Origin: Conoideocrella luteorostrata
Taxonomy: Eukaryota > Ascomycota > Sordariomycetes > Hypocreales > Clavicipitaceae
Assembly (NCBI GenBank): GCA_032433595.1
Contig: JASWJB010000171.1
Span: 26,908-90,907, forward strand
Direction of reading: 5' to 3'
DNA: 64,000 bases
Position 1 is the first letter of the stretch. Every line of letters starts with the position of its first letter. Of this stretch, positions 15,656 to 25,750 are shown in pieces. The notes below the pieces were generated by a model that saw only the letters and a list, made by a program, of their open reading frames with translations, had not been told where the DNA came from and ran no database searches. The position numbers and the translations under genes are program-made.

Positions 15656-17916
15656 TCACGTTTCCTCTGGTGCAAAAAAGGCACCCAGTCTGCAAAGACC
15701 AACATGTTAGACAAGCAACAAGTATATGATAGGTGAGATCGGCACTACTCACCCAATGATACAGTAGCAAACGCACATCAAAGCACCCTTCAAGCCACTA
15801 GTTTCGAGCACGCTGCTCGTATTATTAAGAACCAACAAGTTCACAAGCAGCACCGTCCCAAAAAGAATGACCATCTCAAACACATTAAATGTCAATGCAA
15901 AGTCAACCTTGAGGGCCCAGCCCGCGATGACGACCAGTGGCGCCACACACAGCGCGATTTGGATGGAGGATCCCACGGCAACTGCAATGGCGAGATCTAG
16001 CTTATCGTTGACCGCAACAGCGACAACCGTGACATATTCAGATATATTGCCTACGATGGGGAGGATGATGAGACCAATGAAAGCCTTGGACAAGCCGATT
16101 TGCTGCGTTACCTCGTCGATAGTCGACACGAGCAGATCCGCGTTCATGGACATGAGAACCGAGGCTATTACGAGCACAAACAGCGAGATTAGTAGTTCTA
16201 CTCTGGAGCTGATGCGCCTGGGAGGTTGATCGTGGTCATAATCATGCTGCAAACGATTATTTCTTATGAGGTGCAAGGATGCCAAACCAGATCTGGCAAA
16301 AGTCCGCTCACCACTGATGGAGGAATCGCGACTCAGGGGCCGTATGCTTGACGTCAATGATATTGAACGGGAATGAGCACGTGGTTGCATCGATGCTTGG
16401 TGATAACCTGACGTGGATCGAGATGTTTCTGATCCAGAGCTAAGACGGCGCCCACGACCATGACCTACGGAACTGTCTTGTTCTTCGTCATCGGTACCTT
16501 CATCGTCGGCTTTAGTTGTGGCAGAGCCGAGTTCGAAGCGGTCGGCTTGCTGAGTTGCCGACTCTTCGGCCAAGTCAGCCGAGTCTTCATCTGCGAAACG
16601 GATCGTTCGAGGAGGAAGTACGATCGAATTAGTGCGGTAGCCCGCGCCGAGTCCTCGCCGAGGTTCGCTGTGCTGATTTCTCTCTACATCCGACTGTGCT
16701 CTGGTGTACTCATCCTCGGATGGAGCCTTGTTGTGCCGTATCTCGTAGATGAAATATACCACATATATGCAGAGGATTAGAAGGGACGACAATCTCGTCA
16801 TTTTCAGCACAACGCGGGCAGTTTCTGCATTGTTACCGAAGGCTCGATCAAATGCGCTCTGGATGAGGCTGTTAGAGACAACAAAAACAATAACACAGCC
16901 GGAAAGGTCTTACGGGCATGATGAACGTAAATACCGATACGAACAACAGGCACGCCAAAAGCTGCGCCTCCGTGGTGTTGTAAAGCGTGAGAGACTTGCT
17001 GGCGCTGGCTGCCAATAGAGCAGAACCAAGGATCAACATCAAATTGACGAGAACTGAGCCTAGGAGAGAGGCTTGAACGACCCGAAATTGATTGTCTGCC
17101 AGCGCGACGCTATTGTATAGTCAGCGGCAGGAGCCTCTACACACCGGGTCGTCGTATGCAAACTCACATCCTAGGCGCGAACGAGTCAGCAAATATGTAC
17201 TATCGTAATGCTTCACATATTTTGTCTTACAATAGTATGAGCTCTACTATATTACCGAGTGTGATGTTCAGCAAGGCTCCTAGTGAATCTCCAGAGTGGG
17301 CGGCAATGCGCTCCGTTGCATCCGTCAACAGTGATGACAGAGGTACAATGGCAATTCCGTTCACAATGAAACTTGCCAGTGGAGTTGTTTCCACGAAGTA
17401 GCAAGCTAGACCTATGGGAACAAATACCAGTAGCAGGTTTAGGCGAGACGACGCAAGCATTCCGCAGGAGGTGTTGACGGTCTCTCTGTACCACGTGATA
17501 TTTGGTACAGGCTCAAACTCGTCAAAGTTCTCGAGCGTATGAACCGCGGGGGCAGGCTCATACTGTATCTTCGCGAGTTTTTTGTTACGGATCATCGATA
17601 TAGGTTTGAAGTACAGGCGATTGATGCCTTTGAAAGTTTGTTTGAAGACATGTTAGGCTAGCGTATAGTGTCTGGCCATCAACGATAAGGTTTGTACAAA
17701 AGATGACGAACCTTTCCAAAACTTATTCAAGGAAGAATCCGCTCGCTTTTTTTGATCTGTGACAAAGGTTGAGTAATGCAAATCGTTGGATGCTCCCAGC
17801 ACAGCGCGGGTCGTACTCCCCCCAAAGACGTCGTCATCATGTCGGTCGCTGGGACCCCAGCCATTGTTGCTGCTGCAGCCATCCGTGCGAGGAACTCGAT
17901 ACCCATTATCGTCCAT
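15656..17916 (-). CDS. Vacuolar-type cation (Ca2+)/H+ exchanger, CAX family, divergent, with a 3-nt micro-exon
   Basis: A cation/proton antiporter of 646 aa. Exons: 17916-17712, 17627-17231, 17170-17168, 17109-16914, 16858-15753, 15689-15656. The first half has LLTDATERIAAHSGDSLGALLNITLGNIVELI; the second has GLIILPIVGNISEYVTVVAVA and LAIAVAVGSSIQIAL, the two CAX alpha-repeat regions. A 3-nt exon (GAT) is needed to keep the family's 11-residue spacing between VELI and RVVQ. Without it the frame survives but a helix loses one residue. Odd points: the usual GNAxEH of the second repeat is GNISEY, the YLEG-like stretch near the end is SGLKG, and a Ser/Asp/Arg-rich insert of about 170 residues splits the halves. 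Ion choice may therefore differ from Vcx1. Vacuolar location is inferred. Confidence 0.85.
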
Positions 17917-19167: not shown

Positions 19168-21843
19168 TCAACCCGGTAATCGAAAAGCCAATGAAATGAG
19201 ACTAAGAATATACAAGGGTCTTGCATCTGGGTCGTCTTCCCACATGAGCTTTGGGGAAAGTATTCTTAGCCCGTTTCGATCCCGGCATATATGCTCCAGA
19301 AGGCGTCCCATGCCTCTTGTACTCCGTAACCGCCGTTCCTTTGACCGATCAAGCCACTGACGTTTCTGTTCTGGTGACCATGTACTCGTTGTGTTGAGAA
19401 ACGCTAGAATCATGGCAGCCATCCCTACAGCAATAGGTGTTGCTACTGATGTGCCGCTCATTGGGCGAAATCCGCCGCCTAATTTCGTAGGCCACTGGCT
19501 CCATACATCTTCGCCGTGAGTGATAAAGACGGGTAGAGTTTTGTTACCGCTGGGAGCGAAACGAGAAAGGTTGCCAAGTTCATCACCCGATGTAACGCAA
19601 ATTGCCAAGTCTCGGTCTCGAGCTGGCCACGCTATTGCCTCTCGATTGCTGTGGTTAGCAGCTGCAGCAAAGACTATGATGCCCTTGTGATTCGCTTCTT
19701 CCAAGGTATTCGTCAGGTCGTATGAGCTTTCATAAGAAAACCCTAGCGAGAGATTGATGATATCAACACCTTGCTCTATGGCCCATTGCAGTGCCTATTT
19801 GCAGTCTTGTTAGAAGGGCACATACTTAAAAAGAAGTTGCTCTTAAAATGAAAATGAAAATAAATACAATAAAAATATAAGGACTGAGAAAAGAAGAGAA
19901 GAAAGAGAAAACTTGGATTCAAAAATAGCGGACGATCCACTCAGCCTACCTCTTGTACAGGGCGTCTAGTCTTTCTTCTAACACCTTCTTCCGTGTGGCT
20001 GCCTTGTTTCGTCCGTTGTTGGTCTTCTCCTAAGCTCGTTTTGGCAATATACAACTCGGCGCGCGGGACGGTGCTCAGAATGATGCCCGCAATATGCGTA
20101 CCATGGCCGACTAAATCACTCACATCTTCTTCTTCTCCAGGGCCGCCGACAAAGTTTCTGTATGCTTTGATCCTTTTCCTTTGTGGCACTTCAGGCAGTC
20201 TCTTGACAGCAGCATTTCCGAGCTTCGATGTACGCCTCGCTGGGCGCTGGAAGTCTTCGTGCTCAAGGTCTATGCCTGTGTCAAGGATGGCAATTTTTAC
20301 GGGACCAGACCAATCGGGACCATGGCTCTTTCTGCGGTCATCTTCGGGACTCCATTGGATTTTCTCGTACCATGTGCGCTCTAAATCCGAAAAAAGCTTC
20401 TTTACGTGTTGCGCGCTTCACAGGAGTGAGCATGACGTCGTCAAAAGGAGCAGCTGGGGCTAACTAACTTCTTGGGAGAGGGGTTGGAAGCTTCACCCCT
20501 TGTTGCGTCGCTCAGAGCGTAGAGTTCACCTGCTAATTTAAGCACAGGCTATTTCAGATATCCATAATTGACGTACCTTCTGGCTCGGCGTTCCACCCTG
20601 GAGATGGCGCTCGATCATTCTTGGAACCGTCTGGAACCGGCAATTTCTTACCATTATCGACGGGTTTATCGTTGAGTCTAGGGACTTGATCACTGGGGAC
20701 GTGACGAAAAGTAGGTAGTAATCCAGGAATCGAGAGGCCAGACTTCATTGCCAGCAGTGCCGCACTGTTGCCATCTTTGTTCTTCAACATGACGTTTGCT
20801 TTGCATTGCAACAACGTACGAACAGCATCGCCATGACCGTGCTCCGCAGCAAGCATCAGAGGCGTCCAGTCCCTTCTAGCCTTGCAATTGACCTCGGCAC
20901 CATGGTTAACAAGTATCAATATTTGTTCAGTGAGGCCGAGTTTGGCCGCAACGTGTAGTGGGCGATACAGACCCCCGGGGCTTTTAGCCTCTCTCAAATA
21001 TGGATCCATATGCAAAAGATATATGACGGCTCCTCTTAAGTCCTTCTCTACAGCCCTGTGGATGGCTCTGGGAAGGTCCGGGTTGTTTTTGTCACCATCA
21101 ATACAGGTGATGAACTGTTGATTGGCGTCGGGTACCCAGCAATTGAGATGATGCTTAAACATTCCCTCTCCTGCATTTAGAAGCTCATATATAAGATCAC
21201 GCGGCGACTCTCCGTTTCGATTCGTGACATACATCGACGCACCGTGGAAGCGAAGGAATGAAATTGCAGCGCCGCAACGGGCCTTGACTGCACAATGTAG
21301 GGGCGTGTCACCATCGGCTGTGGCGACATCAACTCTGGCACCATGCCATAAAAGCTGCAAGAGAGTGGCCGGAGATTTTAATTCTGCCGCAACATGAATG
21401 GCAGCTAATCCTGCCCTATCCCCGTCTCTAGCGATCTCAGCCTGCGCGTCAATGGCGACATTATGCTTCAGGAGGATCTTGACGGTTTCGGCTTGGCCAG
21501 CTTGGGAAGCGAGAATAAGAGCGGTCCATTTTGCTTTCGTTTTAGCATTCACGTCTGCACCACTTTCGAGAAGGGTGGTGACGATGGCGTTGAAGCCAAG
21601 CTGCGCGGCATTTTGCAGTGGTGTGCGGTTTTTTTTCTTCCCAGCTTTGTCCCTTGCATTGAGACAATCTTCGCGATACAAAGCCAGGAGTTCTGCAACA
21701 GCGCCATGCTTTTCTTCCAAGACGGCGAGGTGGATTGCTGTTCCCCTGTCATCGCGCCTCTTATCGGGGTCCAATTTGTTTTGTTTGAGAAAGTCCGACA
21801 AGGCTTGAGAGACCGGCCTTGCTTTTAGGTCCGGTTCAGGCAT
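19168..21843 (-). CDS. Ankyrin-repeat subtilisin-like serine protease (S8), candidate activator of the neighbouring gasdermin-like protein
   Basis: 807 aa, no signal peptide, so probably intracellular. Exons: 21843-20577, 20532-20469, 20415-19950, 19794-19168. Residues about 35-400 carry eight or nine ankyrin repeats (TPLQNAAQLGF, WTALILASQAGQ, DTPLHCAVKA, RPLHVAAKLGL, WTPLMLAAEHGHGDA). A linker leads to an S8 domain with D489 (AILDTGID), H548 (GHGTHIAG), oxyanion N646 (AAAANHSN) and S715 (SGTSVATP), so it should be active. The third intron is long for this gene (155 nt) and AT-rich; reading through it gives a stop after two codons, leaving ankyrins plus half a protease. It is divergent from the gasdermin-like ORF with 406 bp between the starts. 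Fungal gasdermins are commonly paired with such proteases. The ankyrins would act as sensor or scaffold, which is inference. Confidence 0.88.
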
Positions 21844-22249
21844 GATGTCTGTCTGGCCCAGCTTGCGTCAGTGTGTTGACAAGCCGCAGGCGTCTGCGCA
21901 CTCGCTATCTGCGCAGACAAGACGTTTTTAATCGTCGACTGATGATGGAAGACACCGATCGCCAAAATTGGCCAATGATGGATGCGAGCTCATGTAAGAG
22001 TCTGTTTCTATTCCTTGGCTAACTAGTTTTCGGTTGCAGGGGGGTTTGGAACCCCGCATGGTGAGGCTGACATGCATATCTCCGGATCAGCCCAGCAACT
22101 GATGCAAGTTCGAGACAAATTTTTTTAACGGTCAGTAAATGAGCTGTTTGCAGGGAATCATTCCGAAACCCTTGGTCAAAAGAGGTGTATTTTGCGCCTA
22201 AAATAGCTCGGCCCGCACCAATCGCTGCGAAAATTGCGCAACAAGGAAG
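21844..22249. promoter_or_regulatory. Shared divergent promoter of the protease/gasdermin-like pair
   Basis: There are 406 bp between the two start codons, transcribed outward. Any regulation here is likely to hit both genes together, as expected for an effector and its activator. I see no clear TATA box or repeated site in it. Confidence 0.6.
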
Positions 22250-23107
22250 ATGCCGTTCGGGAACAAGTCCAAAAAGTACTGGATTGTTCCGCAAGAAGCT
22301 CTTTCTCCGGATGATCTCCAGCTCGGGAGTCTTTTAAAACGACCAAATGACCCGATCGACCTGCTCAACAGAAATGCTGTGGAGCAAATCGAGGCCAAGA
22401 ACATTGTTAAGGAACGCGAGCAAGTCACCAAAAGCCTAAATGATGCCATATCGAATGGATTCGGCATCAATTTTGAAGCTTCGTCCATATTGGCTGCCGT
22501 TTTGGGAGCATCACCAGACGTAGGCGCTGAGCTGTCAAGAAATAAAGGAGACACCATCGAAGCAACAAGAGTCAGAGCGCAGCACTTCATCCCCCCAGAA
22601 GAATATATGAACAAGGCACTTTCTACGCAGCAGGTTGTCGAATATACCAGGCAATCATTCTTCACTGCTCCGGTTTACATGGTTGTCGGTGTAGCTGTCG
22701 CTAGGACGTTGGTCAGAACAGCGAATAATTCTCGCAACACGGAACTCAAGGGTGGGTTTGGGCTTGGCCCCCCGGGCACTGGGATCGAGATATCTGCGAA
22801 CATATCCGGGAATCATGGAAAGGAGTCGGTCTATCAGGATTCGGTAGATGAAGATGTAGTTCTGGCGTATCGTTTGCGGCGCTTTCGCTACTCCAAAGTC
22901 CGCGGTCGACATATCAAGAAAAAGACAGACGAAACCGGTCACGCAATGTACCGTTACATCTCAGAGGATGTCAGCTCTGATGAGGAGAAAGAGGATCCAG
23001 AATATAATCCCGTCTTTTCGTACTTTGAAGACGACGATGTTGCTGCAAGAGATGTAGGCATGGAAGGCTTTGTCGAGGCCGGTGAAGAGGAGGAAGAGGA
23101 CGAATAG
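22250..23107 (+). CDS. Gasdermin-like protein (HET-Q1/RCD-1 type), candidate cell-death effector
   Basis: A single-exon gene for 285 aa with no signal peptide. Sequence marks that read as fungal gasdermin-like are the N-terminal strand and loop (YWIVPQEAL, then LQLGSLLKRPNDPIDLLNR), a central predicted strand (APVYMVVGVAVARTL), a Gly-rich loop (GGFGLGPPGTGIEIS), and the strand VVLAYRLRRFRYSK followed by a Lys-rich stretch. The last 45 or so residues are very acidic and probably flexible (SSDEEKED, EAGEEEEEDE). In known fungal gasdermins a short C-terminal part is removed by a partner protease and the N-terminal part then permeabilises membranes. Its divergent neighbour is an ankyrin-S8 protease, as in HET-Q1/HET-Q2. 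The family call is from pattern and context, not a search; it could instead be an unrelated partner of the protease. Confidence 0.6.
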   Translation: MPFGNKSKKYWIVPQEALSPDDLQLGSLLKRPNDPIDLLNRNAVEQIEAKNIVKEREQVTKSLNDAISNGFGINFEASSILAAVLGASPDVGAELSRNKGDTIEATRVRAQHFIPPEEYMNKALSTQQVVEYTRQSFFTAPVYMVVGVAVARTLVRTANNSRNTELKGGFGLGPPGTGIEISANISGNHGKESVYQDSVDEDVVLAYRLRRFRYSKVRGRHIKKKTDETGHAMYRYISEDVSSDEEKEDPEYNPVFSYFEDDDVAARDVGMEGFVEAGEEEEEDE

Positions 23108-23510: not shown

Positions 23511-25750
23511 TTACTTCTGAAGTGCACTTAATGCCCCCTCGCCGTGATGCGTTGCAGGTTCCGTCTTTTCACTCGCATGCAGCTCATCCTCCGCAAATTG
23601 GTATAATGGGGGGAATGGGCTGACGTCTCGGCGCAAGATGTGCTTGTTGAGATACCAAGGTAGCTTCCGGAGATAGTAGGCGCTGTGGTCGCGGTTCTTC
23701 ATGCTGAACACACTGTCGAGCTCCTCAAGTGTGAGGTTCTTCGTCTCGGGCAGCATGAAGTAGCAGAAGACCCAGCCGAACAAATTCCAAGCAGCATACC
23801 AGCAGAACGCTCCAGTGTTCCCGTATGCTTTCAACAGGGGAGGCCAACTCAAGCTGATGATGAAATTGAATCCCCAGGTGATGGCCGTGCTGGAAGACAT
23901 ACCGATGTCGCGAATGTGCAACGGAAATGCTTCAGCGCTGTACGTGAATGGCACAGGACCCTCGCCTGGTGAGTAGACAACCATGAAAAGGTACAAGCCG
24001 GTGGTGACGCAAGCCAGCTGCGCACTGCCAGGAACGAAAAACGAAAACCCGGTGAACAGCATGCAGAGAGCCATGAGCGGGAAGCTGGTCAGCAAAAGGT
24101 TGCGTCGGCCGAAAGTATCAATGGTGTAGATGGCTGGAATGGCAAAAACCCAGTTGATCAGACCGCCGCCCATGGATGCCAGCAGAGCCTGGGAGCGGCT
24201 ATAACCGGCACTTTCGAAAATGCTGGTTGAGTAATACGCAATCACGTTGACTAAATGAACTGCTTAGCTATTGCTATCTCATACTCGGATGCTTGAAGGA
24301 AGCAGGAAACGACTTACCTCCACAAAATTGCTGCATAAACTATGATGATAAACGGCATTTAGCTTACAGATGCCAACGAGATAAAACGTATCGCTGTCAA
24401 GTGTACTCACCATGGTGAACCATGCGCTCTGGGCAGCACGTCGATTTCGACGCACGGTGAAAAACTCCTTCAAAAGATTTCGACCTTCTCGTTCCTTTTG
24501 CTCAACATGAAGAAGTTTGTATGCGTAGTACATGTCGCGCGTGGCCTGTATGGGATGGTGACGAAGACGTAGAAGGGATCGGAGCGCCCTGTCATACTTG
24601 CCCTTCTCCATATACCATCTAGGGCTTTCGGGACAAAGGTAGACTTGCAGCATGACAAACAAAGGCGGAATTGAGGTCGAGCCCAGCATCCATCTCCACT
24701 GAGAGTGTTCTCCCAAGAAGTTTGTATTCTGGAAAGCTACCGAGGCCACGAAACCAAGGACGATTCCGAACGCTGTCCACATCTACAAATGTCATGTTAG
24801 CGGAAAGCCGATGTTGACTCTTCGATCGTCGTGCTTCTTTACACACCTGCCACATCATGGTGAGCGCTCCTCGGATAGTCTTGGGAGTGCACTCGGCAGC
24901 GTACACTGGAGTTGTGCTAGATTTGGCTCCAACAGCGAAGCCGAGCATGAATCGAGCGGCAAGCAAGTTGCCGTATCTAGACGCGGGGTTAGATCTTCGT
25001 AATTGTTATTGCATGTAGACGAAATGGTTAGCTTACGAATCTGCAACCGCCATCCATATGCCAGTGACTACAGAAATGAAACAAGAGATGAAAATTGTGA
25101 ACCTTCGGCCTCCGATCTTGTTCAGAAATGGATTTGTCCAACAGCCGATGAGTGCAGAGCATAGATAGGGGGCACCATTCATGAGGCCCTGCATGATAGG
25201 ATCTGTTATGTGAAACTCCTGATAGTAGAACACCTGAGATGAAACATTAGCTTCTACTCTCCAGTGTGGAGTGAAAGGGATTTGGTATTAATTCGATCAG
25301 TCATGTGCTTACCTGTGCGCCATTGACAGCAGTCTGATCCATTCCCTGGACAATAGCAGATCCAGCACACAGTGTGCAAAGAAAGTACAGCATAAATGGC
25401 TGGCTCCAGCGATGAGTTACCTCACGCCGAAGAATGGCCTTTTCGTCTTCATCCAGTGTGTCGACCTGTTCGAATCCATTTTTGGAATTCATCACCTGTG
25501 CAACGACAGCTCCTTTGCGGAAATGCTCACGATGGTCGGCGAGCCCTTTCTCATCCACAAATGCGTCCACATCAGCAATCAATTGCTCTCTGGTTAGTCC
25601 AGAGAGAGGATTCCGCAGTAAAGCAGCTGTGGATTGTTTTCGCTCATTGGTGTAGTTTTCTGACTCGTCACCATTGCTAGAAGAGTTGCGATGGAATGCA
25701 GCCCTTTCGCCGGCGTTGGGAGATTCTATGTCTTCCCTTGGAGGAGGCAT
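23511..25750 (-). CDS. MFS sugar transporter
   Basis: A sugar porter of 632 aa. Exons: 25750-25313, 25233-25037, 24976-24847, 24782-24411, 24339-24318, 24250-23511. The fifth exon is only 22 nt and encodes FMQQFCG, completing the helix-7 motif FCGVNVIAYYS. Other marks are GMDQTAVNGAQ, GGRRFTIFISC, RFMLGFAVGAKSSTTPVYAAECTPKTIRGAL, CPESPRWYMEKGKYDRAL, GRRNLLL and LPETKNLTLEELD. The cytosolic N-terminal tail is long (about 120 residues) with acidic and Lys-rich parts, unusual for simple hexose carriers. It sits tail-to-tail with the gasdermin-like gene. Substrate unknown. Confidence 0.9.

What the first reader, a model, noticed from the sequence alone, without database searches (positions are those of the whole stretch)
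19168..23107. Divergent ankyrin-subtilase and gasdermin-like gene pair, a candidate regulated-cell-death module
A protease with ankyrin repeats and an intact S8 triad (D489, H548, S715; oxyanion N646) shares a 406-bp promoter with a 285-aa protein whose strands and loops read like fungal gasdermins and whose C-terminal tail is acidic. Fungal gasdermins such as HET-Q1 are activated by a neighbouring subtilisin-like protease (HET-Q2). Here the sensor part would be ankyrin repeats fused to the protease in one polypeptide. The architecture and pairing are seen or inferred here; the activation mechanism is known only for the family.
Basis: partly seen in the sequence, partly recalled or inferred. 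Interest (0 to 1): 0.87.

Follow-up and report, generated by a model that had tools for sequence, protein, structure and literature searches.

The report
Fungal gasdermin with its ankyrin-protease partner
An insect-killing fungus carries, side by side, a gene for a pore-forming self-destruct protein and a gene for the protease that most likely switches it on; such pairs are already known from many fungi, and this one is a clear additional example.

The parts
22250..23107 (+). Fungal gasdermin gene, 285 aa, single open frame
   Evidence: profile of 37 homologues vs PDB: HET-Q1 1.5e-23, RCD-1-2 6.1e-9; AF2 model matches RCD-1 and other gasdermins first
22250..22951 (+). Residues 1-234: predicted pore-forming domain up to the near-invariant aromatic residue 234
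   Evidence: HET-Q1 alignment covers residues 9-233; residue 234 is Y in 34, F in 2, G in 1 of 37
22952..23008 (+). Residues 235-253: variable acidic linker, proposed region of cleavage
   Evidence: length 15-60 aa in 37 homologues, highest mean entropy of the protein segments compared
23009..23071 (+). Residues 254-274: conserved C-terminal motif FSYF...D...GF, proposed inhibitory peptide
   Evidence: F259, D263, G273, F274 in 37 of 37; F256 35, S257 36, Y258 34 of 37; strand 254-259 in the AF2 model
21844..22249 (.). 406-bp intergenic stretch between the two divergent start codons (promoter function inferred)
   Evidence: sequence
20577..21843 (-). Protease exon 1, ankyrin repeats (about residues 30-370)
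   Evidence: gene model; Pfam Ank_2 five stretches; helical pairs 13-367 in the AF2 model
20469..20529 (-). Protease exon 2 (acceptor ambiguous by 3 bases, NAGNAG; deposited model starts at 20532)
19950..20415 (-). Protease exon 3: S8 domain with D489 and H548
19168..19794 (-). Protease exon 4: S8 domain with N646 and S715, stop codon at 19168

Best explanation
This is a two-gene fungal regulated-cell-death module. The 285-aa protein is a gasdermin kept inactive by a short acidic C-terminal tail. The neighbouring cytosolic protein joins an ankyrin-repeat solenoid (putative sensor) to an S8 subtilisin-like protease. On an unknown trigger bound or sensed by the ankyrin part, the protease cuts the gasdermin in or just before the acidic linker (around residues 234-253); the pore-forming domain then inserts into the plasma membrane as an oligomer and kills the cell, walling off an incompatible, infected or damaged hyphal compartment. 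Shown here: gasdermin family and fold, protease architecture and intact catalytic residues, pairing beyond chance, conservation of both genes in Hypocreales. Inferred from HET-Q1/HET-Q2: cleavage, pore formation, death. Unknown: trigger and biological occasion.
For: Gasdermin by profile vs PDB sequences and fold. ANK plus S8 in one deposited protein with D/N/S in 18 of 18 and H in 17 of 18 aligned proteins. 12 of 14 gasdermin loci of the assembly within 7 kb of an S8 match, 10 of 14 within 3 kb, binomial 2.3e-16. The S8-region matches of the protease elsewhere in the genome (8 rows, 7 loci, E<=0.001; only 56 of 292 candidates were scored) all lie at gasdermin loci. Pair on one contig in 8 of 37 homologue rows, own included, consecutive locus tags in two. 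Modular acidic tail with a conserved end motif. HET-Q1 loses about 5 kDa by HET-Q2 cleavage, likely at F238 (passages of PMC12881547 and PMC10989679).
Against: No cleavage, pore or killing data. Fold confidence is modest (pLDDT 63.7, pTM 0.57; Foldseek TM 0.44/0.52 at best). RCD-1, the closest fold match, works without cleavage, so kinship alone does not prove proteolytic control. Two gasdermin loci of this assembly, C71 and C204, have no S8 match, and at C492 and C5 the S8 gene is 5.7 and 7.0 kb away with other open frames between. 29 of 37 homologue rows could not be paired from the listings.
Confidence: 0.78

Rival explanations
1. The pair is an allorecognition (heterokaryon incompatibility) locus: allelic variants of protease or gasdermin cut across strains and kill fusion cells, as het-Q1/het-Q2 do in Podospora.
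For: Closest characterised sequence is HET-Q1. Same class of two genes.
Against: Homologues at 44-64% identity are spread through Hypocreales, which suits an old shared function; a review states that most fungal gasdermins are not allorecognition genes (passage of PMC12881547). No population data were available.
Confidence: 0.15
2. The gasdermin works like RCD-1, by meeting another gasdermin variant, and the protease next door has other substrates.
For: RCD-1 chains are the best fold matches; the genome has other gasdermins to partner with.
Against: The acidic tail with a conserved end motif and the genome-wide tie of gasdermins to S8 proteases are unexplained by it.
Confidence: 0.06
3. The pores serve secretion or another non-lethal process rather than death.
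For: A review raises secretion as an open role for these two-gene clusters (passages of PMC12881547).
Against: No direct evidence either way here; characterised fungal gasdermins kill cells.
Confidence: 0.08
4. Chance neighbours: two unrelated genes that happen to be divergent.
For: The fungus has 88 S8 loci after merging, so subtilases are common.
Against: 10 of 14 gasdermin loci within 3 kb of an S8 match, binomial 2.3e-16; conserved pairing in relatives.
Confidence: 0.01

Closest known systems
HET-Q1 / HET-Q2 of Podospora anserina (fungal gasdermin and S8 protease)
   Same: Gasdermin of similar length (278 vs 285 aa) with a short C-terminal tail, next to a subtilisin-like S8 protease; sequence match E 5.1e-14 single, 1.5e-23 profile; lengths and cleavage from passages.
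   Different: HET-Q2 is a 388-aa protease; here the protease is fused to an ankyrin solenoid. Allorecognition role untested. The position of F238 could not be aligned because the PDB chain ends at 232.
Q2-L (HET-Q2-like) multidomain proteases with ANK, TPR or WD40 repeats clustered with fungal gasdermins (Clave et al. 2022, seen only through reviews)
   Same: S8 protease plus ANK repeats, adjacent to a gasdermin gene.
   Different: No difference of kind found; this pair is one instance. Whether this very pair is in the published catalogue was not checked.
RCD-1 of Neurospora crassa
   Different: RCD-1 is reported to act by meeting of two allelic variants, not by cleavage; no acidic conserved tail was compared.
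Bacterial gasdermins with neighbouring proteases
   Different: Bacterial, with a buried lipid and short peptide inhibition; no sequence match in the profile search of PDB chains.

Membership tests
Fungal gasdermin (fGSDM) | Sequence kinship to HET-Q1 / RCD-1 | tested here: met
   HET-Q1 1.5e-23, RCD-1-2 6.1e-9, RCD-1-1 9.2e-4
Fungal gasdermin (fGSDM) | Gasdermin pore-forming-domain fold | tested here: met
   Foldseek ranks 1-7 and VIA ranks 1-10 are gasdermins; model confidence modest. 9uv9 (HET-Q1) is not among the rows listed.
Fungal gasdermin (fGSDM) | Short C-terminal tail that inhibits | tested here: inconclusive
   Tail present, acidic, with conserved end motif; inhibition itself cannot be tested here
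Fungal gasdermin (fGSDM) | Membrane pores and cell death | not testable with these tools
   needs expression
Q2-L protease (HET-Q2-like) | S8 domain with catalytic D, H, S and oxyanion N | tested here: met
   Peptidase_S8 1.1e-27; D 18/18, H 17/18, N 18/18, S 18/18
Q2-L protease (HET-Q2-like) | Within 10 kb of a gasdermin gene | tested here: met
   406 bp between start codons
Q2-L protease (HET-Q2-like) | Additional repeat or sensor region | tested here: met
   Ank_2, five stretches
Q2-L protease (HET-Q2-like) | Cleaves the neighbouring gasdermin | not testable with these tools
   needs co-expression
Fungal NLR (NOD-like receptor) | Nucleotide-binding NACHT or NB-ARC domain | tested here: not met
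   Pfam scan of the spliced protein lists only ankyrin models and Peptidase_S8 at E<=0.001
Allorecognition (het) locus | Incompatible alleles between strains | not tested
   no population data held

The most novel reading that the evidence does not exclude
The tail of this orthologous group is a dedicated lock for its own protease: aromatic residue 234 is the P1 site, the acidic linker is a free hinge, and the conserved FSYF...D...GF motif is the inhibitory peptide. The dozen or so gasdermin-protease pairs of this genome, with tails that differ from locus to locus, would then run as insulated parallel death circuits, each with its own sensor (one ankyrin, nine with DUF7580).
Probability: 0.25. 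Interest if true: 0.55.

Novelty: new member of a known kind. Interest (0 to 1): 0.33.

Why it matters
Which signals the repeat-bearing proteases sense is named as an open question in a review (passage of PMC12881547). This pair is small (two genes), conserved across Hypocreales, and offers a defined tail motif and candidate cleavage region, so it is a convenient case for testing how a short fungal tail inhibits a gasdermin and what an ankyrin sensor detects. It does not change the picture of fungal gasdermins.

Tried and rejected
Rejected: chance neighbourhood. Rejected: NLR, since no NACHT or NB-ARC was found in the spliced protein. Rejected as an identification: Pfam DUF3822, E 0.11, below its cut-off. 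Not found by Pfam as a gasdermin: the family is missed by that library for this protein.

Led nowhere: a homologue search with the C88 paralogue found only itself, so it did not bring in full-length HET-Q1, and residue 234 could not be aligned with HET-Q1 F238 (PDB chain 9uv9 ends at 232; HET-Q1 231 aligns with 233 here, so F238 would fall near 240 without gaps, not exactly at 234). Synteny in other fungi could be read only from contig lengths and locus tags, since no fungal genome collection was on hand. A Mantel test of gasdermin against protease distances over 8 pairs gave r 0.923, 1 of 10000 permutations as high; species history explains this as well, so I give it no weight. The original Clave et al. 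2022 paper is not held; three reviews were read in passages only. For C. luteorostrata I saw only a search listing.

Full report
What is there. On the + strand, 22250-23107 encodes a 285-aa protein in one frame; on the - strand, starting 406 bp away at 21843, lies a gene with four exons (21843-20577, 20529-20469, 20415-19950, 19794-19168) that encodes 806 aa. The deposited protein is 807 aa, P0038, Conoideocrella luteorostrata QQS21_007927, on a contig of 90,907 bases, the length of the contig that holds the window. The one-residue difference is a NAGNAG acceptor at the exon 1/2 junction. The window's species is therefore taken to be C. luteorostrata; a genome announcement for strain ARSEF 14590, a pathogen of scale insects, appears in the search listing (listing and abstract start only), and that strain is not proven to be this one.

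The protease. Pfam finds ankyrin repeats and Peptidase_S8 (482-750, E 1.1e-27) and nothing else at E<=0.001. AlphaFold2 of P0038 with 17 relatives gives pLDDT 71.3, pTM 0.46: helical repeats up to residue 367, a low-confidence stretch 373-439, then the protease part. D489, N646 and S715 are kept in 18 of 18 and H548 in 17 of 18 (P0043 has R). Of 120 listed homologues (236 found), 20 carry both ANK and S8 models; I aligned 18 of those 20. The N-terminus reads as hydrophilic, so the protein is probably cytosolic; no signal-peptide program was run.

Pairing. The assembly was first searched with the gasdermin alone (7 loci), then with four paralogues, giving 14 loci; S8 matches were taken from an independent Pfam search (111 matches, 88 loci after merging). 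12 of 14 gasdermin loci lie within 7 kb of an S8 match and 10 of 14 within 3 kb; the background fractions are 4.0% for 10 kb and 1.4% for 3 kb, binomial 1.5e-15 and 2.3e-16. For the seven loci of the first search the counts are 7 of 7 within 10 kb and 6 of 7 within 3 kb. The misses are C71 (a partial frame) and C204 (a degenerate copy with stops). At C492 (5.7 kb) and C5 (7.0 kb) other open frames lie between. A home-made profile on the fetched loci supports the loci and adds one more on C23 near another S8 match; it was not counted, because it was found in a stretch fetched for its S8 neighbour. Partner architecture: ankyrin-S8 at C171 only; DUF7580 frames with S8 at nine loci (C88, C30, C269, C23, C291; C492, C5, C221, C203); none seen in the frames tested at C105 and C4. 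With P0038 as query, the S8-part matches elsewhere in the genome are 8 rows at 7 loci (C88, C105, C492, C291, C30, C269, C221), each a gasdermin locus; only 56 of 292 candidates were scored, so others may be missing.

Relatives. By equal contig length, 8 of 37 gasdermin rows (own included) share a contig with an ankyrin-S8 row: C. luteorostrata, Purpureocillium lavendulum, Fusarium torreyae, Stachybotrys elegans, F. lateritium, Fusarium sp. MPI-SDFR-AT-0072, F. austroafricanum and Moelleriella libera. Locus tags are consecutive in F. torreyae (NW762_003432/003433) and F. lateritium (ACHAP5_006279/006280). The other 29 rows could not be judged: many are from short or unnamed contigs, or the database shows one representative strain.

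The tail. In the 37-sequence alignment the part after residue 217 splits into a stretch that ends in an aromatic residue at 234 (Y 34, F 2, G 1), a linker of 15-60 aa that is acidic and the most variable segment compared (mean entropy 2.3 bits against 1.09 for residues 10-217), and a conserved motif (mean 1.29 bits; F259, D263, G273 and F274 in 37 of 37). Net charge after 234 is -8 to -26 in 37 of 37, against -2 to +8 before it. Of the ten paralogues examined, the script measured a tail in six (58-78 aa, net charge -6 to -19, this one included); for four its motif search failed and only the ends were printed, and those look mixed. The tails differ in sequence from locus to locus.

How it most likely works. 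By analogy with HET-Q1, which loses about 5 kDa when HET-Q2 cuts, likely at F238 (passages), the ankyrin-S8 protein cuts the gasdermin in or before the linker, which releases the motif and lets the pore-forming domain assemble. Residue 234 as P1 is a guess from conservation; by simple offset F238 of HET-Q1 would fall near 240. The trigger is unknown.

Known or new. Reviews state that about 80% of fungal gasdermin genes lie near protease genes, about 60% of these S8, and that ANK, TPR and WD40 repeats are common in these proteases (passages of PMC10989679, PMC10197012, PMC12881547). One also mentions kinase-like domains; whether DUF7580 is that was not tested. This pair is a new, well-supported member of that class. 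Searches behind 'already described'; none of their listings names this pair, but the original catalogue was not held.

Noticed in passing
G000 contigs C88, C30, C269, C23, C291, C492, C5, C221, C203: Nine further gasdermin loci of the same genome sit near S8 proteases with a DUF7580 (PF24476) domain instead of ankyrin repeats.
   Followed up: partly
G000:C204:59536-60256: A degenerate gasdermin copy, 62-69% identical in pieces to the C492 gasdermin, with stop codons in two of three pieces and no S8 match on the contig.
   Followed up: partly
G000:C71:126748-128277 and 130336-130761: A partial gasdermin frame (142 aa) lies about 2 kb from a 510-aa frame of strong ankyrin repeats, with no S8 match on the contig: possibly a decayed or protease-less relative of the arrangement.
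   Followed up: partly
G000:C23:62311-65434: A second gasdermin-like frame on C23 (64727-65434) follows an S8 frame (62311-64068); found only by the home-made profile.
   Followed up: no
G000:C30:73487-74413: A CHAT protease domain in a 1427-aa frame lies about 8 kb from the C30 gasdermin, which also has an S8 protease beside it.
   Followed up: no
G000:C88:58558-59364: The C88 gasdermin (QQS21_005362) found no relative but itself in the protein search, which needs shared 5-residue words.
   Followed up: no
window 20529-20532: NAGNAG acceptor at protease exon 2: the deposited protein has one residue more than the alternative, which a Moelleriella orthologue fits better.
   Followed up: partly
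window 15752-16810 and 23514-24245: Flanking genes are ordinary: a sodium/calcium exchanger and a sugar transporter.
   Followed up: yes
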